From NCBI GenBank assembly GCA_024104275.1, contig JAGGHK010000002.1:109993-173992 (forward strand): 64,000 bases of DNA, written 5' to 3'. The translations under genes and the position numbers were made by a program. Below are positions 19,652 through 58,672 of the stretch, one piece after another; positions within the stretch are counted from its first letter, which is position 1, and every line of letters starts with the position of its first letter. Source of the stretch: Bifidobacterium sp. GTDB taxonomy: Bacteria > Actinomycetota > Actinomycetes > Actinomycetales > Bifidobacteriaceae. Under the pieces are notes generated by a model, which was not told where the DNA came from, did not search any database, and worked only from the letters and a program-made list of their open reading frames with translations.

Positions 19652-19858
19652 GGGGGTTCTTGGCGCGCCAAGAACCCCCTTTTCTCTAAAATGATGGGTA
19701 ATTCTGCCAAAAAACGCCCTCTTGGCGCACCAAGACCCCCAAAATCATAAAAATGAGATCTGATTCTTCGATTTTTGACCCACTTGGCGCGCCAAGAACC
19801 CTTAGAATCGAAGAATTGAGCCTCAATCTTTCATTTTTAGCCCACTTGGCGCGCCAAG
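19652..19858. repeat. 62-bp-period palindrome array A (4 copies)
   Basis: The palindrome CTTGGCGCGCCAAG lies at 19659-19672, 19721-19734 (one mismatch), 19783-19796 and 19845-19858: three steps of exactly 62 bp. The first copy is extended to a perfect 28-bp palindrome (19652-19679) followed by TTTT, so it also resembles the terminator of rimM. The 48-bp spacers differ but share aligned positions, for example ATTCT/AATCT at spacer positions 29-33, and show a weaker second dyad at their middle (clear in 19811-19830). The whole gap between rimM and trmD (19588-19978) contains no gene. Confidence 0.95.
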
Positions 19859-19978
19859 AGTGTCCCTGTATCAACACTTGCATGCTGCTGAACAATACAG
19901 GGACGCAATTCTCAATCCTTCTTATTGATGCCTTGCTTCAGCTTTTACTGACGGATGGGGTCACGATATGGTTGAACC

Positions 19979-20866
19979 ATGAAGATCGATATCGTGTCCG
20001 TGTTTCCCGAGTATTTCGAAGCCCTCAATGTCGGCCTGTTTGGCAAGGCCATCGAGCATGGGCTGCTCGACGTGAAAACGCACGATTTGCGCGACTGGAC
20101 CCACGACGTGCACCATTCCGTCGACGATACGCCGGTCGGCGGCGGCGCCGGCATGGTGATGAAACCCGAGGTCTGGGCCGAGTGCCTCGATGATTTGCTC
20201 GAGCTAGAACCTGTCGAAATCGCGGATACTAACGATGTGGCAGACTCATCGAAGCAATCAGAATCCGATGATGACAGCGAAAATCCTGATTTATCTGAAG
20301 CCAACCCCGCTAAACCGATCCTGATTTTCCCGAACCCTTCGGCACCATTGTTTACCCAGCGCGACGCAACCGAACTTTCGCGAGCCGACCACCTTCTGTT
20401 CGGTTGCGGACGTTACGAAGGATACGACGCACGCATTCCCCGCTACTACCGCGCGCAAGGCGTTGACGTGCGCGAATACTCCATCGGCGACTATGTGCTG
20501 AACGGCGGCGAGGTGGCCGTCTCGGTGATGCTGGAGGCCATCACCCGTCTGATGCCCGGATTCATGGGCAACCCCGACTCCATCGTGGAGGAATCATACA
20601 CTGGCCAGAACGCGCTGCTGGAACACTACCAATACACAAAACCAGCCATCTGGCGCGGCATGGGCGTCCCCGACGTGCTCACGAGTGGCGACCATGGCAA
20701 TGTCAACCGTTTCCGCCGCGACGAGGCCATCGCCCACACCGATCGCCTTCGCCCCGACCTCATCGCGCAGCTCGATTGCAAGTCCCTCGACAAGGCCGAC
20801 CGCAAAACCCTGATGTCCTTGGGCTGGGAGGTCTCCGGTTCGCATCCGCGCAAGTTGAATGACTGA
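19979..20866 (+). CDS. trmD: tRNA (guanine-N1-)-methyltransferase
   Basis: TrmD methylates G37 of tRNAs reading CNN/GGN codons, preventing +1 frameshifts. It has 295 residues, against about 240-260. It begins MKIDIVSVFPEYFEAL and has GGGAGMVMKPEV (about 52-63), the trefoil-knot SAM site LLFGCGRYEGYDARI and YSIGDYVLNGGE (about 165-176), and the C-terminal WEVSGSHPRKLND. An acidic Ser/Asp insertion at about 80-115 lies before the knot. It is separated from rimM by repeat array A, whereas in most bacteria rimM and trmD are adjacent. Confidence 0.95.
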   Translation: MKIDIVSVFPEYFEALNVGLFGKAIEHGLLDVKTHDLRDWTHDVHHSVDDTPVGGGAGMVMKPEVWAECLDDLLELEPVEIADTNDVADSSKQSESDDDSENPDLSEANPAKPILIFPNPSAPLFTQRDATELSRADHLLFGCGRYEGYDARIPRYYRAQGVDVREYSIGDYVLNGGEVAVSVMLEAITRLMPGFMGNPDSIVEESYTGQNALLEHYQYTKPAIWRGMGVPDVLTSGDHGNVNRFRRDEAIAHTDRLRPDLIAQLDCKSLDKADRKTLMSLGWEVSGSHPRKLND

Positions 20867-20898
20867 TTTATTGCCAGAACTAAAAGCGCCAGCAGCGC

Positions 20899-21474
20899 TT
20901 ACTCATGGTCGATGTAGTAGACCTCGGTTTCGCCGTAGTGACGCTGGTCGGAGACTTGCCAGTCTTTCGGCATCACCAGCGGATCGGAACGTGTTGAACG
21001 CTCGAAAACCACGACCGTCTGATCGTCTGCGACCGGAGACGCGACCAAATCGGCGATGAGCTGGTTGCATTCCTCGGTGGTGAGCGCATATGGAGGGTCA
21101 GCGAAAATCACGTCGAAGGCGGGGCCATCGTAGCCCGAAGCGATGCGTTCGGCACGTTTACGCATCACACGGGCTTTCATTACGCGCGAATCCCATGCAC
21201 GGTTGCGCTTGAGATTCTTGAGTTCCTTGTCGATCAGCGCCGCCGCCGGGCCGGCCAATTCAACGGCGACCAGCTCGTCGGCACCGCGCGAAAGCGCCTC
21301 GATGCCCAGAGCTCCGGTTCCAGCGAACAAGTCAAGCACGCGAGCGCCATCCAGCACTCCCCACGCTTCCAGCTTCGAGAAAATGGCCTCTTTCGTCCGG
21401 TCGGTCGTCGGCCGGGTGCCCGGCTTGGCCTTGGCAAGCTCAAATCCCTTGAATCGTCCCGCAATCACACGCAC
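20899..21474 (-). CDS. rsmD: 16S rRNA (guanine966-N2)-methyltransferase RsmD
   Basis: This 191-residue SAM-dependent enzyme methylates G966 of 16S rRNA. It begins MRVIAGRFKGFELAKAKPGTRP (two blocks), with the SAM motif VLDLFAGTGALGIEALSRGA at about 42-61 and the catalytic motif IFADPPYAL (DPPY) at about 123-131. The length is normal. Its start lies 28 bp past the recG stop, so recG and rsmD are probably co-transcribed on the minus strand, a common pairing in actinobacteria. It converges with trmD. Confidence 0.93.
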   Translation of the reverse strand: MRVIAGRFKGFELAKAKPGTRPTTDRTKEAIFSKLEAWGVLDGARVLDLFAGTGALGIEALSRGADELVAVELAGPAAALIDKELKNLKRNRAWDSRVMKARVMRKRAERIASGYDGPAFDVIFADPPYALTTEECNQLIADLVASPVADDQTVVVFERSTRSDPLVMPKDWQVSDQRHYGETEVYYIDHE

Positions 21475-21502
21475 AGTTCTACCTTATAGCTATATAAAGA
21501 GC

Positions 21503-24403
21503 TCAGTTACTCAGAATCTCGGACTCGCCGCCACGCGTGAAGTCGAGGACAGCACCAGCGAGTTGAGGTTGGTCGCCCAACGTTGAGTCACGCTTGAGCA
21601 AGGCTTCCGCCTGTTCGCGGGCATCGGCGATGATCTTGGCATCCTTCACCACACGAAGCAGCTTCAAGCCCGATTTGCCGCCGGACTGGGCGTCGCCCAA
21701 CACGTCGCCGGCGCCACGCAGCTCAAGATCGGCCTGTGCGATTTCGGCACCGTCGAGCGAGCCTTCGATAACCTTCAAGCGTTGTTCAGCAATGCTCCCA
21801 GGCTCGGCGCGAGACACGAGGAACGCCCAAGAATCGGTACCACCTCGACCAACTCGTCCACGTAACTGATGCAGTTGTGAAAGGCCGTAACGATCGGCAT
21901 CAAAAACGGTAATACAACTTGCCTGCGGCACATCTACACCGACCTCGATAACCGTTGTCGCCACCAGAATCGGCGTTTTTCCAGACTCGAAATCAGCCAT
22001 CACCTGCCGCTTGGTTTCGTCGTCGTCACGTCCGGTCAACGTCGCGAATTTTATGCCAGCAAATTGCGGCAAAGACGAAAGCCGGTGCGCGATTTCCTCG
22101 ACGGCATGCAGCGGCGGCTTAGGCTCACGCGGCGAGCCGTCATCATTTTCGTCGCCATAATCGGAGACCTCAATAAAGTCGTCATTGTTTACTTCTTCAA
22201 CACGACTGGACTTTGTACGCTTCGAAAAGCTTTGTGCCGCCAGTTCGGCATCGGCTTCATCCGCATCGATCCTCGGGCAGACAACGTACGCACGCTCCCC
22301 TGCGTCGATGCGCCGACGAATATGCACGAACATCTGTGCCATCATGCTGCCGTCAGCCTCGGGCACGATGAACGTGCGGATCGGCTTGCGTCCGCCGGGC
22401 AGCTCAGTGAGCCACGAGATATCGAGGTCGCCGAACCACGTCATCGCCGCGGTGCGCGGAATCGGGGTCGCCGTCATAACAAGGAGGTGTGGGGTCCGCT
22501 CGCCTTTCGAACGCAGAATCTCGCGCTGCTCAACACCGAACCGATGCTGCTCGTCGATGACCACCAGCGCAAGGTTGGGTGCCTGGAACATCTTTGAAAA
22601 TGCCGCGTGTGTGGCGATGATGATGCCGGGTTCGCCGCTGGCCGCCGCAGCAAGCGCCTTGCGCCGGGCCGCCAGTTTCATTCCCCCGGTCAACAGCGTC
22701 ACCGGGATGGTTGAAGACTGGTTATCAGGCTTTTTCTTGCTCTTACTTGTGCCGTTATCTTCGACATCGAAAGCCATTATTTTATCGGCACTATCACCAG
22801 CAATCTTGGCCACCATGCCGCTGATGGTCTCGAAATGCTGCTCGGCGAGCACCTGCGTCGGTGCCACCAAAACGGCCTGGTTGCCGGATCCGACAGCCTG
22901 CAGCATGGCCGCGAGCGCCACGACGGTTTTGCCGGAGCCAACCTCGCCTTGAAGCAGTCGTTGCATCGGGTAGCTCCGAGCCATGTCCTCGCAGATGGTG
23001 TCGATGACGTCTTGCTGGCCGTGAGTCAGATCAAACGGTAACGATTCAACGAACCGCTCTCGCAGCTCGGAATCCTTGCATTCGAAAGTCTCGGCCTTAC
23101 GCGAGTTCTCACGTTCCTGCAGCACGGAAACCTGCGAGACAAACGCTTCCTCGTAACGTAACGTCGCCAACGCCGCGTGAAACGCCTTGGTTGATTGCGG
23201 ATCATGAATGGCGGCGAACGCGTCAGCCCGGTGCATGAGATGCTTGGACTCAATCACATCCCGCGGCAGCACGTCGTCAATCGCAGCGCGCAATGCCAGT
23301 ACGTTTGCCTTGTTGTCAGCGGCATCGGAATCAGCAACTTCAGGGACGTCATTGCCATTATTGCCATTCCCGCCATCACTTTCCGATAACCCGCCATCTT
23401 CGGCGACAGAACCGTTATCCTCTCCGGCCATCTCCCCTTCAGAGCTGGCTCCACGATTATTCTTCCGTGATGACTCGGCAGGAAAACCGTCACCGGCATT
23501 GACGCTTTCCCTCAGCGCCGCTTCCCCGCTGGCACGCAAAGCATCGAGCATCGCGACAATGGATTCGTGGATATGCTCGGTCGAAATGCGCGAGGTGGCG
23601 TGGTAGACCGGGCGCGGACGGCAGACGTGCCGCAGCGCCTCGTAGGCGGTTGAGGCGTCGAATTTCAGGGCATTCGCAGCCTGCGTTTGCGTGTACACGC
23701 TGCGATTTTGCGTCGCCGCACCCTGGGATTTATTCGACATGAATGAAGCAGCACCCGCAAGATTCTGCGGTTGGGCAGTCTGCTCTGGCTGGAAATGCGA
23801 AGTGGGGACACCAACGGTGGGGACTACGCCACTTTGCAATGAAGCCTGTGCATCGGTCTGGCTGGAAATATCATCGAAAGAAAATTCGCCGGCACTTACG
23901 GAACCCGACGCTGCCGCCGGATTGGCGAAAACGCTGGCACCTTGCGGCATCACCGTGAGCACTTCGGGATGGGTGAACTGTAGCTGGCCGTTGAACTCGG
24001 TCGGCGTGCCAGCGAGAACGACGTCGGCGCCCGAATGCAGACGGCCGCTCATCCAGTCCATATATTGCTTTTTATGCGAGAAAAAGACCAACCGGCAATT
24101 CGCGCCCGCAACCTGGCGACTCGCAGCGAACGCAGCGTCACCGACAACGGCTTCCAGCCGGTACCCGCGTCTGCCGCCCATCGGAATGACCCGAGCAAAG
24201 CGCACCACGGCTGCGAACGCCATCGGCATACCGACCTTCGCCTCACGGATGGCCCGCAGCGGCACAGGCTCGGTGACGCGGAACGGATAGTAGGTCAGAG
24301 CGTCGCCTACCGTGACCATACCAAGCCCTTTGAGCGCGCTGACCCGCCGTTTATTGGCGATCAGCGCGGAAATCGGAGTGGTAAGGGTGACGGTATTGCT
24401 CAT
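21503..24403 (-). CDS. recG: ATP-dependent DNA helicase RecG
   Basis: RecG remodels stalled forks and branched DNA. It has 966 residues, far more than the usual 700-750. The N-terminal wedge (OB-fold) domain is at about 60-140. The helicase core has Walker A GEVGSGKT (about 492-499), a DEQH box in VVIDEQHRFGVEQRE (about 618-632), TATPIPRT, and motif VI QLRGRVGRGG. Two low-complexity insertions explain the size: a Gln/Ala/Ser stretch at about 160-240 and an acidic Ser/Glu/Asn stretch at about 310-365. A smaller insert is at about 735-765. The frame is unbroken, so the gene should be functional. Confidence 0.95.
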   Translation of the reverse strand: MSNTVTLTTPISALIANKRRVSALKGLGMVTVGDALTYYPFRVTEPVPLRAIREAKVGMPMAFAAVVRFARVIPMGGRRGYRLEAVVGDAAFAASRQVAGANCRLVFFSHKKQYMDWMSGRLHSGADVVLAGTPTEFNGQLQFTHPEVLTVMPQGASVFANPAAASGSVSAGEFSFDDISSQTDAQASLQSGVVPTVGVPTSHFQPEQTAQPQNLAGAASFMSNKSQGAATQNRSVYTQTQAANALKFDASTAYEALRHVCRPRPVYHATSRISTEHIHESIVAMLDALRASGEAALRESVNAGDGFPAESSRKNNRGASSEGEMAGEDNGSVAEDGGLSESDGGNGNNGNDVPEVADSDAADNKANVLALRAAIDDVLPRDVIESKHLMHRADAFAAIHDPQSTKAFHAALATLRYEEAFVSQVSVLQERENSRKAETFECKDSELRERFVESLPFDLTHGQQDVIDTICEDMARSYPMQRLLQGEVGSGKTVVALAAMLQAVGSGNQAVLVAPTQVLAEQHFETISGMVAKIAGDSADKIMAFDVEDNGTSKSKKKPDNQSSTIPVTLLTGGMKLAARRKALAAAASGEPGIIIATHAAFSKMFQAPNLALVVIDEQHRFGVEQREILRSKGERTPHLLVMTATPIPRTAAMTWFGDLDISWLTELPGGRKPIRTFIVPEADGSMMAQMFVHIRRRIDAGERAYVVCPRIDADEADAELAAQSFSKRTKSSRVEEVNNDDFIEVSDYGDENDDGSPREPKPPLHAVEEIAHRLSSLPQFAGIKFATLTGRDDDETKRQVMADFESGKTPILVATTVIEVGVDVPQASCITVFDADRYGLSQLHQLRGRVGRGGTDSWAFLVSRAEPGSIAEQRLKVIEGSLDGAEIAQADLELRGAGDVLGDAQSGGKSGLKLLRVVKDAKIIADAREQAEALLKRDSTLGDQPQLAGAVLDFTRGGESEILSN

Positions 24404-24835
24404 ATTCCCATTCTATTGAAGGCCTACGAACGGTTGGAAAGATCAAATTTATACATGGCCCAACGGATCACCGTATCAGCACGTCACATTCAGTAATCGA
24501 CCCATTCAAGGCCATTTGCATTACATATACGTTCGCCGCCAAGGCCCCGAACAGACCCAGAACTTGTGCCAGCAGACCAACAACATGTCGGATTTTTACA
24601 TTCTGTCGATTGCCTACCAAGCAATATCGACCGGCGAGCAGCCGCGCACGACGAATTCCGAATTCGTTGCGACACCAATCCACCAACGCAAAAATCCCGC
24701 ACAAGTCAACAAATACGTTTCCTTAAATGGCCATATTCAGGCAATTCGCAAAACCCATTTGTCGACTTGTGCGGGATTCATCGGTTGAAGCCGCTTACTT
24801 ACGCAACGACTTCCCGACGGTCGTTCACAGACGCA
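24404..24835. other. Intergenic region MFS 3' end / recG start
   Basis: These 432 bp hold the leader of recG (minus strand) and the terminator of the downstream MFS gene (24693-24778). Several short open frames cross it, but none has a ribosome site or protein-like composition. Confidence 0.5.
24693..24778 (-). terminator. Long-armed hairpin, terminator of MFS gene
   Basis: Arms of 22 bp (24693-24714 and 24757-24778) pair with one mismatch across a 42-nt loop. The core is AATCCCGCACAAGTC and its complement. On the minus strand the second arm is followed by TTTTT, giving a terminator 57 bp past the MFS stop. The arms are unusually long for a terminator, so a small inverted-repeat element (MITE-like) is an alternative. 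Confidence 0.65.
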
Positions 24836-26572
24836 TCAACGCTTCGAGGCATCGTCCGTCGAGGTCTGCTTGGCCAGACCGAAGGAGATGATGAACGCGA
24901 TGATGGCGAGCACCAGCGCAAAGGTGAAGCCCCAGCGCGAGCCGGTGACGAAGGCCATGGCCTTGCCGCCGGAGTGGGAGGCGGCCTGGCCGGCACCCAA
25001 CAGAATCGTGGCGACGGCGGTGATGACCGCGCCGAGCACCTGCTGCATCGTGTTGAGGATAGTGGAGCCGTCGGTCGAAAGATGCTGCGGCAGCGAGGCG
25101 AGCGCGGAGGACTGGGCCGGGCTCATGGCCATCGGGATGCCGATCATCAGGATGACGTGCGCGCAGATGATGTATGCCACGGAAGTCGACGGGCCTGCCA
25201 GCATCAGCAGGACGACGCCGATCATGGAAAGCACCAATCCGCCGCGCACGAGCCATTTCGCGCCGACGATGTCGTAGAGACGGCCGGCGAACATGGAGAC
25301 CAACGCATTGACCACGCCGCCTGGCAGCATGACGAGGCCGGTGAGCGCGACCTTGACGCCGAGGCCGTTCTGCAGTTCCTGAGGCATCAGGTACATCGTC
25401 GCCAGCGTGATGCCGAAGTTCATCATCACGATGAGCGCGCCGACGGTGAACTGGCGGATGCCCAGCGCATGCAGGTCGATGACCGGGTTGCTCATGTGCA
25501 GCTGGCGGTAGCTGTAGCAGGCGATGGCCGCGATGCCGACCACCAAAATGGCGATAACCGGCAGCGAGAAACCGAAATCGCTGATGAGGCTCACGCCGAG
25601 TACGAACCCGCCGAAGCCCAAAATCGAGGTGATGCAGGAAAGCGCGTCGATATGCGGCTTGGTGAGCTTGTATGCGTTGACCATCCAGATCGAAGCGCAA
25701 ACGAACGCGACCAACGCGATGGCGGCGAAGAAGAAGAAAATCGCACGCCACGAGAACGCGCCAATCAAGCCGCCGGCGAGGGTCGGGCCGATGGCCGGGG
25801 CAAACATGACCACAAGACCCGCGGTACCCATAGCGGCACCGATTTTGTTCAAGGGGAAGACCTCAAGGATGACGGAGAACATCATCGGCAGCGCCAAACC
25901 TGTCGAGATGCCCTGAATCATACGGCCCGCAAGCAGCACGCCGAACGAAGTACCGGGCGCGAAACCTGAAATCAAGGAGCCCACGAAGAACATCGCCAGC
26001 GCGAACAGCAGCAGGGGCTTCGACGGAATCCACTTCAAGAGCAGGCTGGTGAACGGCAGCACGATGCCGATGACGAGCATGTAGCCCACCACCATCCACT
26101 GCGCGGTGCCGGAACCGATATGGAAGCTCGTCATCAGGTCGGGCAGCGCGATGTTCATTGCGGTTTCGCTGAGCATGCCGAGGAACGCGCCAAGGTAAAG
26201 GCCAAGCATCGTCAGATTCGGATGCTTCACATCCACGCGTGCCTTCAACGGGTTGCGCTCTCCCGAAGCTGAGTCATTATGACCGGTATGTGGTTGCTCC
26301 GTCACGTCATTTTGATGTAACAGCGACGTTTTCGCGTCACTTTGCGATGACAGCTCATCCGCCGTAAGCGGTTTCACATCGGCAACTTTCTGCGCCGATT
26401 GCGCCAGACTGCCTGTGGGCGACAAAGGCGCCTCACGCTTCCTCGCCGACATCGAAGCATTGCTCCTTTTGTGCGCAGACGCTTTCGCGCTTCCGTTTTG
26501 CTGCGACATCCCGTTTTCAGACGCAGTAGACCTAGACATGGCAGAGCCCATGTTTTTCTTTCTCCATTTCAT
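24836..26572 (-). CDS. MFS drug exporter, DHA2 (EmrB/QacA) type
   Basis: This is a 578-residue multidrug:proton antiporter with about 14 membrane segments from residue 120 on. It begins the membrane part with MLGLYLGAFLGMLSETAMNIALPDLM (two blocks), and has the loop region QWMVVGYMLVIGI and the motif C-like GPTLAGGLIGAFSWRAIFF (about 264-282), typical of DHA2. The first 115 residues are a long Ser/Ala/Lys-rich cytoplasmic extension; a shorter product from a later ATG is possible. No regulator is adjacent, and substrates cannot be predicted. Confidence 0.88.
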   Translation of the reverse strand: MKWRKKNMGSAMSRSTASENGMSQQNGSAKASAHKRSNASMSARKREAPLSPTGSLAQSAQKVADVKPLTADELSSQSDAKTSLLHQNDVTEQPHTGHNDSASGERNPLKARVDVKHPNLTMLGLYLGAFLGMLSETAMNIALPDLMTSFHIGSGTAQWMVVGYMLVIGIVLPFTSLLLKWIPSKPLLLFALAMFFVGSLISGFAPGTSFGVLLAGRMIQGISTGLALPMMFSVILEVFPLNKIGAAMGTAGLVVMFAPAIGPTLAGGLIGAFSWRAIFFFFAAIALVAFVCASIWMVNAYKLTKPHIDALSCITSILGFGGFVLGVSLISDFGFSLPVIAILVVGIAAIACYSYRQLHMSNPVIDLHALGIRQFTVGALIVMMNFGITLATMYLMPQELQNGLGVKVALTGLVMLPGGVVNALVSMFAGRLYDIVGAKWLVRGGLVLSMIGVVLLMLAGPSTSVAYIICAHVILMIGIPMAMSPAQSSALASLPQHLSTDGSTILNTMQQVLGAVITAVATILLGAGQAASHSGGKAMAFVTGSRWGFTFALVLAIIAFIISFGLAKQTSTDDASKR

Positions 26573-31052: not shown

Positions 31053-31103
31053 ACCTGGCTGCAACACTGCAACATCACGTTTCGTTTTTCTCACTCACCG
31101 CCC

Positions 31104-31215
31104 CGCGTCGGAAAGCAGAATCAAACGGGCGTTATTCTGCTTTTCAACGCAACAAGCGACAAAGCCGCGTTCAAAAGCAGTATTTCGGGACCTATTTTCT
31201 GCTTTCCGACGCGGT
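31104..31215. repeat. 62-bp-period hairpin array (family 3, 2 copies)
   Basis: Two consecutive hairpins contain GAAAGCAGAAT/ATTCTGCTTT-type arms. AAAGCAG occurs at 31113 and 31175, and CTGCTTT at 31138 and 31200, both steps exactly 62 bp. The outermost arms CCGCGTCGGAAAGCAGA (31104-31120) and its perfect complement (31199-31215) also pair, so the dyads lie 31 bp apart. It sits between the convergent mscS and CPBP genes and may act as a terminator (TTTT at 31216-31219). The sequence is unrelated to the CTTGGCGCGCCAAG family. Confidence 0.9.
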
Positions 31216-35653: not shown

Positions 35654-35729
35654 CTTGGCGCGCCAAGTGGCCTATTTTAACGACATTGATGCTCAATTCT
35701 GCGATTTCCGAGCCTCTTGGCGCGCCAAG
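35654..35729. repeat. 62-bp-period palindrome array B (2 copies)
   Basis: CTTGGCGCGCCAAG lies at 35654-35667 and 35716-35729, exactly 62 bp apart. The second copy extends to the perfect 20-bp palindrome CCTCTTGGCGCGCCAAGAGG. The 48-bp spacer has ATTGA-tgc-TCAAT at its middle and GGC/GCC at its ends, so it is a weak dyad. It has ATTCT at spacer positions 29-33 like array A. The array lies between plsC (ends 35749) and gpsA (starts 35487), both on the minus strand. Confidence 0.93.
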
Positions 35730-47421: not shown

Positions 47422-47540
47422 CATATCAGCAGACAGAATGTACGACGATTATTGGGAATGAAGACATACAGTAATCTCATTACCCTACTTCCCTTACATA
47501 AAACATCTACTACACCTTACAATTTAATCTTAAATTGATA

Positions 47541-47603
47541 AATTGTATATTATACTTTACAATTATTAAAAATAAACAGTAATTGTATGTTATACTGGAC
47601 AAT
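47541..47603 (+). promoter_or_regulatory. Duplicated 23-bp promoter element, likely leaderless start
   Basis: AATTGTATATTATACTTTAC plus AAT (47541-47563) recurs with three changes at 47581-47603, 40 bp later. Each contains TATACT, and in the second copy this -10 (47591-47596) ends 7 bp before ATG 47604, so the mRNA would be leaderless; no ribosome site is visible. Each copy is also a weak dyad (ATTGTA...TACAAT), so a repressor could bind both. Confidence 0.6.
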
Positions 47604-48875
47604 ATGAAACAACAGGCAGAATCAGCTCATGCCATCAACGTGCCTCGTAAAGCATTGCTCCAAAGCTTGGAATCGCACGATTACACTGATCAGATCAAAG
47701 TGCTTGTTGGCGTGAGACGCTGCGGCAAATCGACATTATTGCAGCAATATAAGCAACAAGTTTCTGGCAGCGGTATACCAGACACCAACCTCTTCTTTAA
47801 ACGTTTCGATAGCTTCAGCATACCAATCGGCTACGATGCCCAAAATCTTTATGACGAACTCGCAAAAGCGATACAAAAGCTCGACGAGAAATACCCGTTT
47901 TATGTCTTTCTCGATGAAATCCAGGATGTACCCGGCTGGGAGAAAGTGGTGCGACGGCTGCATACACGGGAAAACACCCACGTCTACATCACTGGTTCCA
48001 ACGCTCAGTTGCTTTCAGGCGATCTGGCTACTTATCTGGCTGGCAGATATCTCACCATACCCGTGTATCCTCTGTCGTTCAATGAATACCTTGAATATCG
48101 TCGCATGCTCGGTGAGGTTCCCAAGCCAACCACTGACTATCTCGGGGATTATCTTCACTTCGGCGGCATGCCAGGGCTCCTGAAATACGGTCTGCCAAGC
48201 GAAAGCCAGGCACGCGAGACCTTGGAAGACATTTATCAGTCCATAGTGGTCAAGGACGCGGCCGGGCACAACGGAATCCGCGATATTCCAACCCTTACGA
48301 CGATAAGCCATTACCTGTTTTCCACTTCCGGCAACCTTTTTTCCCTTCGTAAAGTAACCAACACACTACGCAACACAGGACTCAACGTCTCCCCGATGAC
48401 CGTCAACGCCCACATCACTGCACTGACGGAGGCACTGGTTATCTACCGCGCCGAGCAGGAAGGAATATCAGGCAAGCAGATTCTACGACCGACGAGTAAG
48501 TATTATCCGGTTGACAATGGTTTCCGAAATCTTGTGAACGGCTTTAGCAACAAGGATCTCGGACTCCAGCTCGAAGGCGTTGTATACATGGAGCTTCGTA
48601 GGCGCGGATACATAGTTACCGTGGGAACAGGCGAGCATGGCGAAGTCGACTTTGTGGCAAGAAAAGGCAGCGAAAAACAATATATCCAAGTCACGTTGTC
48701 AATGCTTGAGGAATCCACGCACGAGCGCGAGCTAAGTTCACTGCAAGCGCTGACCGACGCTTTCCCACGCATGGTCATCACCATGGATCCGGTTTCGGCG
48801 GGAGTGACGGACGAGGGCATCCGTATCGTCCACGCCCCGCAATGGCTGGCCGGAGATGACAAAGGCAATATGTAA
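47604..48875 (+). CDS. AAA-type ATPase with DUF4143
   Basis: This 423-residue ATPase belongs to the common AAA_14/DUF4143 group. Walker A is GVRRCGKSTLL (about 33-43), Walker B is YVFLDEIQDVPGWE (about 97-110), and an arginine-containing segment ITGSNAQLLSGDLATYLAGRY (two blocks, about 130-150) follows. The C-terminal half (about 200-420) is DUF4143 with the PD-(D/E)xK-like region EVDFVARKG (about 349-357). The function of the family is unknown, although it is often found in variable regions and near toxin-antitoxin genes. AT-rich flanks and a leaderless duplicated promoter suggest it was acquired. Confidence 0.85.
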   Translation: MKQQAESAHAINVPRKALLQSLESHDYTDQIKVLVGVRRCGKSTLLQQYKQQVSGSGIPDTNLFFKRFDSFSIPIGYDAQNLYDELAKAIQKLDEKYPFYVFLDEIQDVPGWEKVVRRLHTRENTHVYITGSNAQLLSGDLATYLAGRYLTIPVYPLSFNEYLEYRRMLGEVPKPTTDYLGDYLHFGGMPGLLKYGLPSESQARETLEDIYQSIVVKDAAGHNGIRDIPTLTTISHYLFSTSGNLFSLRKVTNTLRNTGLNVSPMTVNAHITALTEALVIYRAEQEGISGKQILRPTSKYYPVDNGFRNLVNGFSNKDLGLQLEGVVYMELRRRGYIVTVGTGEHGEVDFVARKGSEKQYIQVTLSMLEESTHERELSSLQALTDAFPRMVITMDPVSAGVTDEGIRIVHAPQWLAGDDKGNM

Positions 48876-52414: not shown

Positions 52415-53950
52415 TCACTTCCCCACCCCGGCGTCGGCGACCTTGGCGTATTTGCCGAGCTCCGAGCGCACTTTGAGCATCGCGGTATAGGTGCAATAGA
52501 TATGTTTCGGCTTGCCTGGATCTGCCGTGACGAACTGGCGCACGGCTTCTTCGATATTCGTATCGGTTTTCGCGACTTTAACACCCTCGTATTCCAAGCG
52601 CAAAGCCATATCCCAAGCCCGTACGCCGGAAACCATTTCGACGCCGGTGCCTCGCAGCGAAGTGAAATCGACATCCCACAGCCAGCTCATGTCACGGCCG
52701 TCGGCATATTCGTCATTGATGACAATCATCGTATCGTGACCATCGGGTGCGAAGCTCGCCAGCGACATCCTGAATCCCATCGGGTTCTTGACCAGCAACA
52801 GCTCGACCGGGGCCTTGCCCACGGTAATGACCTCGCCGCGTCCGAATGCCGGAGTGACATGCGAAAGCGCCCGCATCAACCGTTCGTCGCGCGCCCTGGG
52901 CAGGGTGACGTCGGCGTTTTTGATTTCCTTGGTGACCGCACGAACCACGGCGAGCGCCGCTGCCGCGTTGAACAGGTTATAGACGCCCTCGAGCTGGACT
53001 TTCGTCTCGAATTCGGCATCGTCCATCACGAATTCCGCCTCGTGGTCACCCACGCGGTTCAGCACCACGTCCGCGAGACGCTGCGATGCCAGCGAATCTG
53101 CCATGGCCAAGGATGCTGAAACGGTCTCCCGCGCATCGAGTTTGGGAATGATCCTGTTACCTTCGGAATCGAATATGTCGTGCGAAGCCGCCATATCGAC
53201 TTTTGCAGCGGTTGCAGGCGCGACGGCACTGGCCAATGCCGTGTTGACGCCTTCCACCTTCGCCGCGGCCTTTTCGGCGGCAGACAGATCGCCGGCATGC
53301 ATGTCATCGTCGGAGGGGAACAGCTTGCGCAATTCGTCGGAAAGCCCGAAATACCTGACCTGCGTACCCTCTGGCACCACGTTCGCGAGCGCGGCTATCC
53401 GCCGGTCCTCACGATTCAAGACCACCGTTCCCGTCGTCGCTTCGGCAACGTGGCTCAAAAGCCGAGCGGTGTTGTCGATCTCGCCAAAACGGTCGAGCTG
53501 ATCACGCATAACGTTCAACAACAAGGAATACCGCGGCCTGACCTGATGCACAAAATGCACCGCGTACGCCTCGTCCAGCTCCAAGACCGCGATGTCCGCG
53601 TCGAGCTTGCCGGAAGCCGAAACTTCGGTGAGCAGCGCCGAGACGACCCCGCGAGTGAAGTTGGAGCCGGTGGGGTTGGTGAACACCTTCAGATTGAGGT
53701 CTTTGAGCATCGAGGCAATCATGCGGGTGGTCGTGGTCTTGCCGTTCGTACCGGAAACCAGCACAACGCCGTAAGGCAACTGACCAAGCGTGCGCGCCAA
53801 AAATCCGGGATCGATCGTCTCGACCACTTTGCCGGGGAATGCGCTGCCGCCATGACGCAGCAGGCGCGAAAGCCCACGAACCGCCTTGCCGATGGTCGGA
53901 GTGGCAAACGCGTTCCACGGCCTGCGAGGCGTTGAAGCAACCTTCGCCAT
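52415..53950 (-). CDS. murT: Lipid II isoglutaminyl synthase, MurT subunit
   Basis: MurT is the Mur-ligase-like partner of GatD. I set the start at 53950 (MAKVASTPRR, AAGGAAC site); upstream open codons are not conserved. It has 511 residues. The ATP loop SGTNGKTTTTRMI lies at about 70-82, the central domain has AVLELDEAY and LLLNVMRDQLDRFGE (about 140-154), and the C-terminal DUF1727 domain has LLLVKNPMGFR and VINDEYADGRDMSWLWDVDF. The zinc-ribbon cysteines found in the middle of MurT from staphylococci are absent; an Ala/Asp-rich insertion (about 205-250) occupies that place. Only one cysteine remains, near the C-terminus. Confidence 0.92.
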   Translation of the reverse strand: MAKVASTPRRPWNAFATPTIGKAVRGLSRLLRHGGSAFPGKVVETIDPGFLARTLGQLPYGVVLVSGTNGKTTTTRMIASMLKDLNLKVFTNPTGSNFTRGVVSALLTEVSASGKLDADIAVLELDEAYAVHFVHQVRPRYSLLLNVMRDQLDRFGEIDNTARLLSHVAEATTGTVVLNREDRRIAALANVVPEGTQVRYFGLSDELRKLFPSDDDMHAGDLSAAEKAAAKVEGVNTALASAVAPATAAKVDMAASHDIFDSEGNRIIPKLDARETVSASLAMADSLASQRLADVVLNRVGDHEAEFVMDDAEFETKVQLEGVYNLFNAAAALAVVRAVTKEIKNADVTLPRARDERLMRALSHVTPAFGRGEVITVGKAPVELLLVKNPMGFRMSLASFAPDGHDTMIVINDEYADGRDMSWLWDVDFTSLRGTGVEMVSGVRAWDMALRLEYEGVKVAKTDTNIEEAVRQFVTADPGKPKHIYCTYTAMLKVRSELGKYAKVADAGVGK

Positions 53951-54080
53951 ATTGCGTTCCTTATTGCCGGGATGGTTGGTTGCGTTAGTGTTGCCTTGAG
54001 TATTCATGATTACCGGCCTTGTGCGAACGATGATTGGATGATTCGTTGAAAGCCCATTGACCCTGTAGACTGCGTCAGCA

Positions 54081-55514
54081 TCAGACCCCCTGGTTGTAAT
54101 CCTGCGGCATATCGCGGAAACGAGAGTATTCACCTTGGAAGGCGAGCGGGAATGTGCCGGTTTTGCCGTTGCGGTGCTTGGCAAGGATGATGTCGGCCTC
54201 GCCCGGCCGGTCCTCTTCATTGTAGAAATCGGGACGATGGACGAGGAAGACGACGTCGGCGTCCTGCTCGATGGAACCGGACTCACGCAGATCGGCGAGT
54301 TGCGGCTTCTTGTCGTTACGCATCTCGGGGCCGCGGTTGAGCTGGGAAAGCGCGACCACAGGCACCTCAAGCTCCTTGGCCAGAAGCTTCAGCGCACGCG
54401 AAAATCCCGAGACCTCTTGCTGACGGCTTTCCTCCTGCTTGCCAGAGCTCATGAGCTGCAGGTAATCGATGATGACCAGTTTCAGGTCGTTGGTCTGTTT
54501 CAAACGGCGGCATTTCGCACGGATTTCCATCAGGCTCATGTTCGGGCTGTCGTCAAGGAACAGCGGCGCGTTTTGCATGGCCGTCCAGAAATCGTTCAGG
54601 GTGTTCCAGCGTTCCGGGGTCAGGCTGTCGTTGTCCGCGCGGCGCAAGGCGACCAGCGGGATGCCGGTTTCGGCGGAGATGATACGTTGCGCCAGCTCGG
54701 TTTTGCTCATCTCGAGCGAGAAGATGACGGTGGTCAGATTGTTGTGCAGCGCGGCAGAACGCGCGAAATCCACGCCCAAGGTCGACTTTCCCATCGCCGG
54801 GCGACCCGCCACCACGATCATCTGCCCGGGCTGCAGGCCTTGCGTTTCGTCGTCGATGCCTTTGAAGCCCGTCGGCACGCCTTTCTCTATGGTTCCGTTC
54901 TGCAAGGCGTCGAGCTGGTCGAGCGCATCGTGGACCACTGGACCGATGGCCTCGTAATCCTGCCGTACTTTGCCCACACTCATTTCGTAGACCTCGGACT
55001 GGGCCAGATTCACCACATCCTCGGCCTGCGAGCCTTCGGCGGAATAGCCGAGCTGCGCGATTTTCGTACCGGCGGCGATGACGTTGCGCAGAATGGCTCG
55101 TTGGTGAACAATCTCAGCATAATACGTTGCGTTAGCTGCGGTCGGCACCGAAGCCACCAAACTGTGCAGGTAATCAACGCCGCCCGCTTTTTCAAGGTTG
55201 CCGTCCTTCAGAAGTGCGTTGGCAACGAGAACAGCATCTACCGGTTCCGAAGCGGAGAACAATGTGATGATCGCTTCGTAGATGGTTTGGTGCTTGGGTT
55301 GGTAGAAATCGGTGACGTCGATCATCTGCGAGACTTCGCCGATGGCGTCCTTGCTCATGAGCATGCCACCCAATACCGCCATTTCCGCGTCGTCGTCGTG
55401 CGGGGGAACGCGGTCAAACAACGTCGCGTTATTTGCGGAAGTATCACTGTTGAACGTGCCTGTGTTGAAGTCGCTGTTTGTACGCGTTGAGTCCCAAGAT
55501 TTTCCGTCTGCCAT
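54081..55514 (-). CDS. dnaB: Replicative DNA helicase DnaB
   Basis: DnaB is the hexameric fork helicase. I chose the start MADGKSWDS at 55514; the 26 upstream codons look like leader. It has 477 residues, with no intein. The N-terminal domain begins RVPPHDDDAEMAVLGGMLMS (about 35-54). The RecA-like domain has GRPAMGKSTLGVDFAR (Walker A, about 232-247), VIIDYLQLM (Walker B, about 340-348) and SQLNRGPEMR...KPQLADLRESGSIEQDADVV. A cluster of DnaA boxes lies just upstream. murT and gatD follow on the same strand after 130 bp. Confidence 0.96.
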   Translation of the reverse strand: MADGKSWDSTRTNSDFNTGTFNSDTSANNATLFDRVPPHDDDAEMAVLGGMLMSKDAIGEVSQMIDVTDFYQPKHQTIYEAIITLFSASEPVDAVLVANALLKDGNLEKAGGVDYLHSLVASVPTAANATYYAEIVHQRAILRNVIAAGTKIAQLGYSAEGSQAEDVVNLAQSEVYEMSVGKVRQDYEAIGPVVHDALDQLDALQNGTIEKGVPTGFKGIDDETQGLQPGQMIVVAGRPAMGKSTLGVDFARSAALHNNLTTVIFSLEMSKTELAQRIISAETGIPLVALRRADNDSLTPERWNTLNDFWTAMQNAPLFLDDSPNMSLMEIRAKCRRLKQTNDLKLVIIDYLQLMSSGKQEESRQQEVSGFSRALKLLAKELEVPVVALSQLNRGPEMRNDKKPQLADLRESGSIEQDADVVFLVHRPDFYNEEDRPGEADIILAKHRNGKTGTFPLAFQGEYSRFRDMPQDYNQGV

Positions 55515-55647
55515 GCCGTCAAGCTTAACCAAATCACCGTAAAAAATCAGCGTTTCGTGCGCGCTTCCTCCCAAAGCTCTACAACGCAACAATGAAAATG
55601 TTCATTTCACTTTCTACCTCACATGGCGACACGCACGGGCTTTTATC

Positions 55648-55751
55648 TGTGGATAAGAAAATATGTTATCCACATTTTGGGCGTGTCATTGGGGACAATG
55701 CGCAAAGTTATCCACACCATGGGGATAACTCTGTGTACAACGTGGGGATAG
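55648..55751. promoter_or_regulatory. DnaA-box cluster upstream of dnaB
   Basis: Three perfect TTATCCACA boxes lie at 55648-55656 (minus orientation), 55666-55674 and 55708-55716 (plus). One-mismatch copies TGGGGATAA (55720-55728) and a weaker TGGGGATAG (55743-55751) follow. AT-rich DNA (about 55800-55920) lies next to them. The gap 55515-55975 has no gene. DnaA-controlled dnaB expression, a DnaA titration site or an origin-like element are possible; which one is not decidable from sequence. Confidence 0.8.
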
Positions 55752-55919
55752 CGACCTCGTTATCGATTTGCGATTTGCGTAAAATCTCATCTTGTGATAG
55801 CTCGTTCATCTTTTGAACTGACGCCCAACGAACATTTTCTTATATGGTTTTTAGAGACGAAATATATTGGTTTTGTCTCAAAAATACAATCGAAAGATAT
55901 ACGCATTGTTAAAATAAAA

Positions 55920-55952
55920 AATCTCCCCGCCGGCACACCCAGCGAGGAGATT
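55920..55952 (-). terminator. Terminator of murA
   Basis: AATCTCC-CCGC and GCG-GGAGATT form a stem around CGGCACACCCA. On the minus strand it ends with TTTTTTATTTT, 24 bp past the murA stop. Confidence 0.85.
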
Positions 55953-55975
55953 GAAAAGTCGGAAATACGAAACCG

Positions 55976-57301
55976 TCAGTCGAAATCGGCACCGAGGGCG
56001 GCAAGTTTGCCACGGAAGTCGGCGTAGCCGCGGTCGATGAGGCTAATGCCTTGCACGTTCGACGGGCCGTTGGCCGCGAGCGCCGCGATCAGGTGGCTGA
56101 AGCCACCGCGCAGATCCGGCACGTCGATGTCACGTCCTTCGAGCGGCGTGGGCCCGAAGATGACGGCGGAGTGCTTGTAATTGCGCTGCTGGAAACGGCA
56201 CGGCAGACTGCCAAGGCATTCGCGGTAGAGCTGGATGGTCGCGCCCATCTGCACCAGCGGCTTGGTGAAGCCGAAGCGGTTCTCGTAGACGGTTTCATGC
56301 ACGATCGAGAGACCGTTGGCCTGCGTCAGCGCGACGACGAGCGGCTGCTGCCAGTCGGTCATGAAGCCGGGGTGCACGTCGGTCTCGATGGCCACGGGCT
56401 TCAAATCCCCACCCGGATGCCAGAAACGGATGCCGTCGTCGGTGACATCGAACTCGCCGCCGATCTTGCGGTAGACGTTCAGGAACGTCATCATCTCGGG
56501 CTGCGTGGCACCTTTCACGAAGATGTCGCCGTGAGTCGCGAGCGCGGCGGAGGCCCAGGAAGCGGCCTCGATGCGGTCGGTCAGCGCGGTGTGTGTGAAG
56601 CCTTTGAGCGTCTTGACGCCCTCAATGCGGAAGGTACGGTCGACGTCGACGGAAATCAATGCACCCATCTTCTGCAGCACGGCGACCAAGTCCATGATCT
56701 CGGGCTCGGTGGCGGCACCGGAAAGTTCGGTCTTGCCCTCGGCCTGAACCGCGGCCAGAAGCGTCTGCTCGGTCGCGCCTACGGACGGATACGGAAGGTG
56801 AATCTTCGCGCCGTGCAGGCCGTTGGGAGCGGTGATATGGATGCCGTCGCTATGCTCCTTGTCGACGTTGGCGCCGAGCTTGCGCAGCGTCTCCAGATGG
56901 AAGTCGATCGGCCGGCCGCCGATGTTGCATCCGCCGAGCTGCGGAATGAACGCCTCGCCCAAGCGGTGCAGCAGTGGGCCCGAGAACAGAATCGGGATGC
57001 GCGATGAGCCGGAAAGGGTGTCCACGTCGGCCACGTCGGCAAGCCGGACATTGCTCGCGTCGATCTTCAACGTGCCTTTGGAATCGTCCCAATCCACGGT
57101 CGCGCCATGCAGACGCAGCAGGTCGGAGACGACGTGGACATCACGGATCTCAGGGACATTTTTCAAGACGGAAACGCCGGGCGCGAGCAGCGCGGCCACC
57201 ATGGCCTTGCTTACGAAATTCTTGGCTCCGCGCACCTTGATCGTACCGTTGAGCGGTTTGCCGCCTTCGACGTGCAGGACGTCTTGTGTAGTATCTGCCA
57301 A
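55976..57301 (-). CDS. murA: UDP-N-acetylglucosamine 1-carboxyvinyltransferase
   Basis: MurA starts peptidoglycan synthesis by adding enolpyruvate to UDP-GlcNAc. I favour TTG 57301 (reading MADTTQDVLHV) because AGAGG lies six bases upstream; TTG 57307 is the alternative. It has about 441 residues, normal length. The N-terminal lysine is in KVRGAKNFVSKAM (about 22-34). The fosfomycin-target loop keeps its cysteine (QLGGCNIGGRPIDFH, about 126-140). VHETVYENRF and the DLRGGF segment near the C-terminus complete the family pattern. It is monocistronic on the minus strand with its own terminator. Confidence 0.95.
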   Translation of the reverse strand: MADTTQDVLHVEGGKPLNGTIKVRGAKNFVSKAMVAALLAPGVSVLKNVPEIRDVHVVSDLLRLHGATVDWDDSKGTLKIDASNVRLADVADVDTLSGSSRIPILFSGPLLHRLGEAFIPQLGGCNIGGRPIDFHLETLRKLGANVDKEHSDGIHITAPNGLHGAKIHLPYPSVGATEQTLLAAVQAEGKTELSGAATEPEIMDLVAVLQKMGALISVDVDRTFRIEGVKTLKGFTHTALTDRIEAASWASAALATHGDIFVKGATQPEMMTFLNVYRKIGGEFDVTDDGIRFWHPGGDLKPVAIETDVHPGFMTDWQQPLVVALTQANGLSIVHETVYENRFGFTKPLVQMGATIQLYRECLGSLPCRFQQRNYKHSAVIFGPTPLEGRDIDVPDLRGGFSHLIAALAANGPSNVQGISLIDRGYADFRGKLAALGADFD

Positions 57302-57795
57302 AATCAACCTCTTTCGTCGGCCCTCTACTAAGCGAGCTCACTACTACATAGTGTGCCACAGCGGTTGTGGTGGCTCGGTGAAGCTCGGCCCAAAATGCGC
57401 CCGAGGCCGAACGGACATCCAGTCTGGCCATAACCAAACAGACGCGTCCATCTGCCCAAATCCACCAATAGTGTCCCGAATCCCTCAAATATCTCTCTCA
57501 GGACACTGTTGGCGCGCCAAGCAGGGCCTTATATCCTAATTATCAATAGAATCTCGCGTTGAAGAACATGTTGGCGCGCCAAGTTAGCCCTTTTAGGCAG
57601 AAATCTCGTCTATTTGCAAATTTTCGATAGTCTTGGCGCGCCAAGTAGACCGTTAAAAGACGATTACGAGCAAAATCTTCCGTTTTCGGGCAACTTGGCG
57701 CGCCAAGAGGTAGCATTTATACCGAATTTCACATCATATATCGCTTATTTTGGGCACATGACTACGCCCGCGAAAGAACCGATGCGGATTCCGGA
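57302..57795. other. Intergenic region leuD/murA with array C
   Basis: These 494 bp carry the murA leader (57302-57507), which contains the small hairpin CCACA...TGTGG near 57356-57371, and then array C. No gene or clear terminator for leuD was seen. Confidence 0.5.
57508..57707. repeat. 62-bp-period palindrome array C (4 copies)
   Basis: The core TTGGCGCGCCAA lies in 57508-57521, 57570-57583, 57632-57645 and 57694-57707, with every step exactly 62 bp. The first two copies have G instead of C at the outer left position. The three 48-bp spacers differ but keep AATCT/ATTTG at spacer positions 29-33 and a mid-spacer dyad (GATT...AATC in the third). The last copy is followed by AGGTA, as in array B and at the window start. 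The array lies between the 3' end of leuD and the start region of murA. Confidence 0.95.
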
Positions 57796-58476
57796 CTACG
57801 CATCGATGGGCCCAGCCCACGCGCTATCGTCCACCGGACGGGCGGACCTGACCGGCTCTTCGGGGGCATGCTTGGCAGGGAGGGTCTTGGGCTTGAAGGG
57901 GAAGCGCTGAGCGCGCATCTTTTCGTAGTCGGCGATGGCGTCCTCGTGCTGCAGCGTCAGGTCGATGTCGTCGTAGCCGTTCATCAGGCGCCAGCGCGTG
58001 TAATCGTTGACCTCGAAGGGCAGGGTGACGTCACCGCAGGTCACAGTGCGCTCCTTGAGATCAACGGTCATATCGCGGCCGGGCTCTTCTTCCAACAACT
58101 TCCAAAGCAGCTCGACGCTTTCCTGCGGCATGATGGCGGCCAGCACACCGTTCTTGGCGGTGTTGCCATAGAAGATGTCCGCAAAACGAGGGCTGATGAT
58201 GACGCGGAATCCGTAATCCCGCAGCGCCCAAACCGCGTGCTCACGCGACGAACCTATGCCGAAATCTGGACCGGCGACAAGAATCTTGCCCTTGTTCTGA
58301 TACTCGGGCTTGTTCAGGATGAAGTCCGGGTCACGTCGCCACGCATAGAACAGCGCGTCCTCGAAGCCCGTCTTGGTGACGCGCTTCAAAAAGACCGCGG
58401 GGATAATCTGGTCGGTGTCAACGTTCGAACGCCGAAGCGGGACACCGACGCCGGTGACCTGCGTAAGTTTCTCCAT
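57796..58476 (-). CDS. leuD: 3-isopropylmalate dehydratase, small subunit
   Basis: LeuD completes the leucine-pathway isomerase with LeuC. It has 226 residues, within the family range. It begins [20 protein letters not shown], then [13 protein letters not shown]. It carries the swivel-domain motif [17 protein letters not shown] (about 69-85) and the ending with [24 protein letters not shown] precedes the ATG. It is separated from leuC by 288 bp carrying a 62-bp-period hairpin array, whereas leuC and leuD are usually almost adjacent, so differential expression is likely. Confidence 0.95.
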
Positions 58477-58557
58477 AATGTTGCTTCCTTATATTCCTAA
58501 AAGTTCCTCATGTTCCAAATGCTAAATTCGCCTGGTCGGCAAGCCATCCCACGGCCT

Positions 58558-58672
58558 AATTGTGTCTTTTTACTTGCGCTGAAAGCCGTTCCAAGTAAAA
58601 AGACACATTTGGCGGGTCTATTTATGCCTTTTTACTTAGATGCCGTCAGCAAGCAAGTAAAAAGACACAATT
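58558..58672. repeat. 62-bp-period hairpin array (family 2, 2 copies) between leuC and leuD
   Basis: TGTGTCTTTTTACTTG (58561-58576) and CAAGTAAAAAGACACA (58592-58607) form a perfect 16-bp stem with a 15-nt loop. A second unit repeats both arms exactly 62 bp later: CTTTTTACTT at 58628 and CAAGTAAAAAGACACA at 58654-58669. Its left arm has changed at two or three positions. The outermost arms (58558-58576 and 58654-58672) are perfect complements over 19 bp. The dyads are 31 bp apart. It lies in the leuC-leuD gap and could act as attenuator or RNA-processing site. Confidence 0.93.

What the first reader, a model, noticed from the sequence alone, without database searches (positions are those of the whole stretch)
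19652..58672. Three unrelated palindromic sequences all repeated at exactly 62 bp, with dyads every 31 bp
Arrays at 19.66, 35.65 and 57.5 kb (CTTGGCGCGCCAAG), at 31.1 kb (GAAAGCAG hairpins) and at 58.6 kb (CAAGTAAAAAGACACA hairpins) share no sequence, yet every centre-to-centre step I measured is 62 bp. In each family a second dyad lies midway, so symmetry centres recur every 31 bp, about three helical turns. The same period in different sequences suggests a common mechanism or constraint: a protein polymer reading one DNA face, an RNA-hairpin element of fixed length, or a shared amplification process. I do not recognise this as a described element. The function is unknown.
Basis: partly seen in the sequence, partly recalled or inferred. 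Interest (0 to 1): 0.92.

Follow-up and report, generated by a model that had tools for sequence, protein, structure and literature searches.

The report
Nuclease genes with phased palindrome arrays
Bifidobacterial genomes carry many short palindrome arrays whose spacing follows whole turns of the DNA helix, and at least one array here has the motif that brackets a little-studied family of likely DNA-cutting enzymes, which suggests an unrecognised repeat-and-enzyme system.

Summary
The arrays are real and far beyond chance. In the window's genome TTGGCGCGCCAA occurs 47 times against 0 for its reversed control, and 31 pairs (up to 2 mismatches) sit exactly 62 bp apart. The 31-bp dyad step follows from any tandem inverted repeat. 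62 is not unique: bifidobacterial intergenic arrays have periods near 42, 52, 62 and 72 bp, whole helical turns; eight arrays from other families of the order show no phasing. Covariation tests in two families argue against RNA.

One family flanks a gene for an AbiEi-like winged-helix protein with a PD-(D/E)XK nuclease signature. Relatives occur in 93 of 112 genus genomes. Upstream and downstream flanks share a segment at 43 of 54 genus nuclease loci and 16 of 23 outside the genus, against 3 of 175 and 0 of 69 control genes. Array motif follows protein relatedness. The window's 31.1-kb array has the motif of nuclease loci L222 and L223. Published AbiEi-family operators imply 63- and 52-bp repeats.

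I read the arrays as operator-type sites of this family and its relics. No cognate gene was found for the CTTGGCGCGCCAAG or 58.6-kb families.

The parts
3..16 (.). CTTGGTGCGCCAAG site, right end of an array that starts left of the window (the stretch between it and the next exact site is partly masked)
   Evidence: locus L017; flank-matched arrays in G029 and G120
10101..10136 (.). single dyad of the GAAAAGCACC-N16-GGTGCTTTTC family
   Evidence: genome-wide 28 copies with up to 3 mismatches, control 0
19659..19858 (.). CTTGGCGCGCCAAG array, 4 sites at 62 bp, between rimM and trmD
   Evidence: flank-matched array in G116
31103..31212 (.). GCGTTGAAAAGCAG-type array, period 62, between an MscS-like gene and a CAAX-protease-like gene (convergent); same motif as the arrays beside nuclease genes of G120 (L222) and G034 (L223)
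35654..35729 (.). CTTGGCGCGCCAAG array, 2 sites at 62 bp, between glycerol-3-phosphate dehydrogenase-like and acyltransferase-like genes
   Evidence: no flank-matched array by the criterion
57508..57707 (.). CTTGGCGCGCCAAG array, 4 sites at 62 bp, between an EPSP-synthase-family gene and an aconitase C-terminal-domain gene (leuD-like)
   Evidence: no flank-matched array found
58553..58684 (.). CAAGTAAAAAGACACAA array, period 62, between the aconitase C-terminal-domain gene and the aconitase-family gene (leuD/leuC-like)

Best explanation
The arrays are tandem, helically phased binding sites (operators) of the AbiEi type. Their makers are a family of proteins with an N-terminal AbiEi-like winged helix and a C-terminal PD-(D/E)XK, Vsr-like nuclease. 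Shown here: the nuclease genes are bracketed by matched palindromes or arrays, related proteins have related array motifs, and arrays of one motif lie dispersed mainly in genomes that carry the matching nuclease. Inferred: the protein binds its half-sites cooperatively and bends DNA, which forces whole-turn spacing. Inferred: the nuclease cuts array DNA, and repair from bracketed copies inserts, deletes and spreads arrays and gene, as a homing or REP-like element does; specificity drifts, leaving orphan arrays. Window status: the 31.1-kb array belongs to this system by motif; the CTTGGCGCGCCAAG and CAAGTAAAAAGACACAA arrays are placed here by architecture only, and may be orphans or have passed to another DNA-binding protein.
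For: Phasing: 58 bifidobacterial array periods between 36 and 76 (own genome and one tRNA-pair row left out) cluster at 10.4-bp multiples, R=0.76, 0 of 20000 uniform draws; other families of the order n=8, R=0.11. Association: phased array within 700 bp of the gene in 40 of 50 nuclease rows (39 of 49 after removing one locus present twice), both sides in 24; controls 41 of 321 and 1 of 321. Matched flanks 43 of 54 in the genus and 16 of 23 outside it (16 of 22 in other families) against 3 of 175 and 0 of 69. Pairs of loci sharing array 9-mers: 15 of 18 at 70% protein identity or more, 5 of 1027 below 48%, 0 of 5000 permutations. One syntenic locus in eight genomes has four motif classes. TGCAGAGATAATCACA half-sites: 89, 67 and 28 in the three genomes with that nuclease, 22 in G116, 0-4 in the other 12 of 16; reversed control 0-1. 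Same junction empty (30 bp), solo remnant, or full element; arrays present or absent as blocks. Active-site residues invariant in 34 of 34; dN/dS 0.08-0.34 in 7 pairs. Geometry: 23+13+23+4=63 (Rv2827c) and twice 23+3=52 (AbiEi), my sums from PMC7319586 (abstract and found passages).
Against: No binding, cutting or movement was tested. No nuclease of the family was found in 58 sources with CTTGGCGCGCCAAG-type arrays (profile search, about 1-2 kb each side), nor a CAAGTAAAAAGACACAA motif beside a nuclease. The own genome has only two family members, one with an in-frame TAG. Orphan arrays are common: 24 GAAAAGCACC dyads in G118, whose copy of the locus lacks the nuclease, and 44 in G116, whose locus has another motif. 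10 of 50 nuclease rows lack a phased array; nuclease loci were the best matches or hand-picked relatives, not a random sample. 13 of 22 own CTTGGCGCGCCAAG arrays have a flank-matched counterpart in another species, pointing to vertical retention for that family. The nuclease assignment rests on invariant residues and weak profile hits; no structure could be predicted. Motif-protein coupling may partly reflect shared ancestry of flanks, and arrays of related species are not independent in the phasing test. In one array pair (L065/L081) inner-stem changes look compensatory.
Confidence: 0.62

Rival explanations
1. The arrays are host regulatory or chromosome-organising sites of a conserved DNA-wrapping or nucleoid protein, and the nuclease genes merely use the same kind of site for autoregulation.
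For: 13 of 22 own CTTGGCGCGCCAAG arrays have a flank-matched array in another species, and the core is GGCGCGCC in most own sites but GGTGCACC in nearly all listed G029 and G117 sites, as expected for sites that follow a trans-acting factor. AT/GC alternation about every 10 bp. No nuclease found beside this family.
Against: Motifs are numerous and differ between species; some arrays come and go as blocks between species about 87-94% identical over the locus; nuclease genes are bracketed downstream as well as upstream, also in other families of the order, which autoregulation does not need.
Confidence: 0.22
2. REP-like repeats mobilised by an unrelated transposase (RAYT/Y1 or a MITE helper), with the nuclease as a frequent passenger.
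For: Inverted half-sites, dispersed intergenic copies, lower frequency in divergent gaps: convergent 19 of 144, codirectional 30 of 369, divergent 9 of 173 (crude gene calls); gene bracketed by repeats.
Against: Units differ at most positions outside the consensus, helical phasing is not needed for hairpin transposition, and no Y1 match appears among the nuclease hits. A search for RAYT genes in the genome was not made.
Confidence: 0.07
3. RNA hairpin elements (terminators or structured transcripts) of fixed length.
For: Long inverted repeats; GAAAAGCACC-N16-GGTGCTTTTC resembles a two-way terminator; apparent compensatory changes in L065/L081.
Against: No covariation in n=32, 51 and 31 units; inner W-tracts anti-complementary; periods near whole DNA helical turns; no Rfam match in the window besides tRNAs.
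Confidence: 0.04
4. Coincidence or an amplification artefact of tandem slippage with no function.
For: Tandem repeats arise by slippage; some arrays hold near-identical copies (e.g. L097).
Against: Quantised periods, conserved consensus with variable spacers, matched flanks of nuclease genes.
Confidence: 0.02

Closest known systems
AbiE type IV toxin-antitoxin operators (AbiEi of Streptococcus agalactiae; Rv2827c of M. tuberculosis), PMC7319586
   Same: N-terminal winged helix of AbiEi kind; inverted half-sites; the published gaps give a 63-bp repeat for the two Rv2827c pairs and 52 bp for two AbiEi half-steps; cooperative binding (positive for AbiEi, negative for Rv2827c), DNA bending reported for AbiEi.
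   Different: C-terminal part carries a nuclease signature; matched arrays or palindromes also lie downstream of the gene and arrays are dispersed through the genome. A neighbouring toxin gene was not looked for.
RAYT transposases with REP/REPIN/BIME repeats (recalled)
   Same: Single gene bracketed by inverted repeats, family-specific repeats dispersed between genes, orphan repeats.
   Different: Enzyme has a PD-(D/E)XK signature and no Y1 match; repeats are phased to helical turns and vary outside short motifs.
Free-standing homing endonucleases, including Vsr-fold EDxHD enzymes (recalled)
   Same: Selfish-looking nuclease, presence/absence at one junction, an interrupted copy in the own genome, changing specificity.
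   Different: Putative target is a palindrome array that brackets the gene and also occurs at other loci without the gene.
MTES_1575 Vsr-like REase domain (PF18741), described in PMC3710099
   Same: Weak profile match (E 0.24); a Vsr-like REase fused with winged helices there too (found passages read).
   Different: That protein is a very large fusion with HEPN and helicase domains; no repeats are described in the passages read.

Membership tests
AbiE type IV toxin-antitoxin | AbiEi-type winged helix | tested here: met
   PADLOC AbiEi profile PDLC02228 in 30 of 34 members and Pfam AbiEi_4 in 9 of 34 at E<=0.01, all weak; PF09407 over its cut-off in the L070 relative
AbiE type IV toxin-antitoxin | adjacent DUF1814 nucleotidyltransferase toxin | not tested
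   neighbours were not scanned for it
AbiE type IV toxin-antitoxin | operator geometry of paired 23-bp inverted repeats | tested here: inconclusive
   array periods cluster at 60-64 and 50-53, as 63 and 52 from PMC7319586 predict; half-site length and borders were not mapped
RAYT/REP | Y1 (HUH) transposase | tested here: not met
   the bracketed gene has no Y1 match in Pfam; the whole genome was not searched for RAYT
PD-(D/E)XK nuclease | conserved acidic residues and lysine | tested here: met
   E204, D240, E254, D256, K260 invariant in 34 of 34; their reading as an active site is mine
PD-(D/E)XK nuclease | restriction-enzyme-like fold | not tested
   structure job was interrupted and a new one was not accepted; no PDB sequence relative
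Homing endonuclease | cleaves the empty site and copies itself | not testable with these tools
   only presence/absence seen
Rfam RNA families | match at gathering score | tested here: not met
   only two tRNAs in the window

The most novel reading that the evidence does not exclude
A new kind of selfish or domesticated drive system in Actinomycetales: an AbiEi-type winged-helix nuclease whose phased palindrome arrays serve both as its landing sites and as recombination ends, with PRDM9-like turnover of specificity at a fixed locus, and in bifidobacteria co-option of orphan arrays (such as CTTGGCGCGCCAAG) as genome-wide nucleoprotein sites.
Probability: 0.35. Interest if true: 0.93.

Novelty: categorically new. 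Interest (0 to 1): 0.86.

Why it matters
It would explain a common class of bifidobacterial intergenic repeats: in the trmD sample 53 of 686 intergenic segments of at least 90 bp carry a significant tandem array with period 36 or more. It would suggest a role for a protein family found in 88 of 149 genomes of the order, and give a bacterial system in which a DNA-binding specificity and its genomic sites can be compared at one syntenic locus. It is directly testable with one purified protein and one array.

Tried and rejected
RNA hairpins: rejected for the two families tested. Promoter operators: arrays are less frequent in divergent gaps (crude gene calls). Paralogue clustering of own proteins to find the binder led nowhere. 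Conserved junction placement across species was inconclusive: 13 junctions, 13 hits in 110 segments. A PF13338 search in ten genomes gave no candidate for the CTTGGCGCGCCAAG binder; 13 of 14 control genomes also ring at that permissive cut-off, so it is weak evidence. A first GAAAAGCACC pattern had the wrong gap and found one chance match; corrected, whose 31 units include some chance matches and the window's own 31.1-kb site. Literature: searches for TTGGCGCGCCAA, Bifidobacterium palindromes, RAYT, helical arrays, DUF559, MTES_1575 and AbiEi; judged from listings, plus found passages of two papers, none describes the arrays or this gene with repeats. The library holds open-licence papers only.
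Full report
WHAT WAS CLAIMED AND WHAT IS THERE. The three families and their 62-bp steps are in the window at the stated places. In the whole genome (G000, 2,164,548 bp, 19 contigs, 94.85% complete) TTGGCGCGCCAA occurs 47 times against 0 for the reversed pattern, and 31 pairs with up to 2 mismatches lie exactly 62 bp apart against 0. In the 19 further loci fetched most steps are 62, with a few of 60, 61 and 63. The 31-bp dyad step is automatic for a tandem of inverted half-sites. The genome holds more families of the same format, among them GAAAAGCACC-N16-GGTGCTTTTC (28 dyads, control 0) and ATGCGAGnAAAATCAGG.

THE PERIOD IS HELICAL. I scanned intergenic segments de novo for tandem lag repeats. 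In 80 named Bifidobacteriaceae loci around trmD, 102 of 686 segments exceed a score that 3 of 2058 dinucleotide shuffles reach (53 of the 102 have period 36 or more); in 20 further genus stretches 15 of 140 (0 of 420); in 40 stretches of other families of the order 30 of 255 (12 of 765), with no peak at 52 or 62 and many periods divisible by three, as missed coding sequence would give. One of the 20 genus stretches (L193) had been chosen because it holds a CTTGGCGCGCCAAG-type array; the rest were taken at contig starts. Periods from 36 to 76 bp in the two bifidobacterial samples (n=58; one row, two tRNA-like units in L191, and the own genome left out) cluster at 10.4-bp multiples with R=0.76, reached by 0 of 20000 uniform draws; other families n=8, R=0.11. 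Rows with period under 36 or over 76 were not used. Some of the species are close relatives, so the arrays are not all independent.

NOT RNA. Across 32 units (midway dyad) and 51 units (core dyad) of the CTTGGCGCGCCAAG family, complementary pairs per unit are 17.50 and 16.12 against 17.74 and 16.70 when arms are re-dealt. In 31 GAAAAGCACC units the total is 15.55 against 15.76, and inner W-tract positions are complementary in only 0.10-0.19 of units against 0.40-0.46 expected, because both are A-tracts or both T-tracts. The first family alternates AT-rich and GC-rich about every 10 bp over the 62-bp unit, the pattern of bent or wrapped DNA (recalled). A result the other way: between L065 and L081 some inner-stem changes look compensatory.

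THE CANDIDATE PROTEIN. Among the own-genome stretches read, ATGCGAGnAAAATCAGG arrays were found at one locus only, around an open frame that looks like a nuclease (L166:12368-13081; the partial whole-genome list agrees). Relatives occur in 93 of 112 genus genomes, 1 to 10 matches each. An alignment of 34 shows invariant G203-E204-S205, D240, E254-x-D256-G and K260, which I read as a PD-(D/E)XK active site. Pfam AbiEi_4 matches 9 of 34 and a PADLOC AbiEi profile 30 of 34, all weakly; NCBIfam and PDB sequences give nothing. PF18741, the MTES_1575 Vsr-like domain, is only a hint (E 0.24). Seven close pairs have dN/dS from 0.08 to 0.34.

ASSOCIATION WITH ARRAYS. The loci tested are the best matches and hand-picked relatives, not a random draw. 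Of 50 nuclease rows (L216 and L247 are one locus), 40 have a phased array within 700 bp and 24 on both sides; of 321 control genes of similar size 41 and 1. The 400-bp flanks upstream and downstream share a segment scoring 20 or more in 43 of 54 genus loci and 16 of 23 loci outside the genus; shuffled flanks 0; control genes 3 of 175 and 0 of 69 (77 of 79 distinct loci had usable flanks; one of the 23, L276, is from another genus of the same family). In the 22 loci from other families 16 reach 20 (two of them, L284 and L288, barely above their shuffles); L277, L280, L282, L283, L287 and L298 do not. There the bracket is typically one palindromic element of about 50-75 bp on each side rather than an array.

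MOTIF FOLLOWS PROTEIN. Pairs of loci sharing at least two repeated 9-mers: 15 of 18 at 70% protein identity or more, 5 of 40 at 55-70, 5 of 91 at 48-55, 5 of 1027 below; 0 of 5000 permutations (49 of 55 loci had enough repeats). Shared ancestry of flanks may account for part of this. At one locus, between a dinB-like gene and an aminotransferase-like gene (my reading of the frames), eight genomes (own, G116, G029, G121, G120, G034, G119, G025) carry the nuclease with four motif classes: GCGAGnAAAATC or GCGATGAAAATC; CGACGAAAAGC; CGTTGAAAAGC; GTGAGAAAAGCAC or GTGGGAAAAGCAC. The window's 31.1-kb array has the third motif: GCGTTGAAAAGCAG with up to 2 mismatches occurs 6 times at L222, 5 at L223 and 2 at L217. 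The own GAAAAGCACC family has the fourth.

DISPERSAL, GAIN AND LOSS. TGCAGAGATAATCACA half-sites with up to 2 mismatches (both strands summed): G029 89, G117 67, G034 28, all with a nuclease bracketed by that motif; G116 22 without one seen; the other 12 of 16 genomes 0 to 4; reversed control 0 or 1. GAAAAGCACC dyads: G025 51, G119 46 (matching nuclease), but also G116 44, own 28, G118 24, G121 22, G002 15, G034 11, G004 10, G120 8, G117 5, G029 3 without a matching one seen; 0 in G015, G011, G028, G008; reversed control 0 to 2. The dinB junction is 30 bp in G015, a solo array remnant in G004, CAAX gene with two half-sites but no nuclease in G118, nuclease without CAAX gene in G119 and G025, and array-CAAX-array-nuclease-array in own, G116 and G029; anchors failed in G028 and G011. 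Whole arrays are present or absent between close species elsewhere.

THE CTTGGCGCGCCAAG FAMILY IS AN OPEN POINT. As 62-bp pairs (TTGGYGCRCCAA, up to 2 mismatches) it occurs in 7 of 112 genus genomes (own 34, G120 47, G121 49, G029 21, G117 20, G116 1, G002 1; control 0). The core is GGCGCGCC in most own sites, GGTGCACC in nearly all listed G117 and G029 sites, mixed in G120 and in the few listed G121 sites: two symmetric C-to-T type changes. 13 of 22 own arrays have a flank-matched array in another species (criterion, counted). None of 50 nuclease loci carries it, and a profile search found no nuclease in 58 sources with such arrays. It may be an orphan family, or one taken over by another protein.

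MECHANISM. AbiEi monomers bind two 23-bp inverted repeats 3 bp apart cooperatively and bend DNA; Rv2827c binds four, with 13-bp gaps within and 4-bp gaps between pairs (PMC7319586, abstract and found passages). Those figures give repeats of 52 and 63 bp, close to the two main periods here. I therefore infer tandem AbiEi-type operators read by the winged helix, with cooperativity setting whole-turn spacing. That the nuclease cuts arrays and spreads by repair is inference from bracketing, presence/absence and conserved residues. It would work like a RAYT-REP or homing system; I do not file it as a member of either.

GENE CONTEXT IN THE WINDOW. Arrays lie between rimM and trmD, between MscS-like and CAAX-protease-like genes, between glycerol-3-phosphate dehydrogenase-like and acyltransferase-like genes, beside an EPSP-synthase-family gene, and between the two aconitase-family genes.

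Noticed in passing
L246, L249, L254, L256, L259, L262, just upstream of the nuclease ORF: A shared leader with a TTATCCACa/c box (DnaA-box-like, recalled) followed by CACGCCG and TTCGACCACA precedes these six nuclease genes, hinting at coupling to replication.
   Followed up: no
window 55637-55744: TTATCCACA/TGTGGATAA boxes at about 42-bp spacing next to a dnaB gene; could be a DnaA-box cluster.
   Followed up: no
window 47498-47596: About 40-bp spaced repeats with AATTGTATrTTATAC-like units at the start of the frame at 47583-48875, whose start codon is uncertain.
   Followed up: no
CTTGGCGCGCCAAG arrays in G000, G120, G029, G117: Core shifts between species by symmetric CpG-to-TpG type changes; could be a specificity change or methylation-driven deamination.
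   Followed up: partly
L166:10588-13136 and window 31103-31212: CAAX-protease (Rce1-like) genes lie beside these arrays in both places; in the first the gene is itself bracketed by arrays.
   Followed up: partly
G000:C13:42097-43065: The own copy of the array-bracketed nuclease has an in-frame TAG, so only the C16 copy looks intact.
   Followed up: no
GAAAAGCACC units in L156-L172: Inside the symmetric arms the inner 16 bp tends to be asymmetric and occurs in both orientations (AAAA..AAAA or TTTT..TTTT).
   Followed up: partly
window 61351-61486: Short-period (22-23 bp) tandem repeats between two genes.
   Followed up: no
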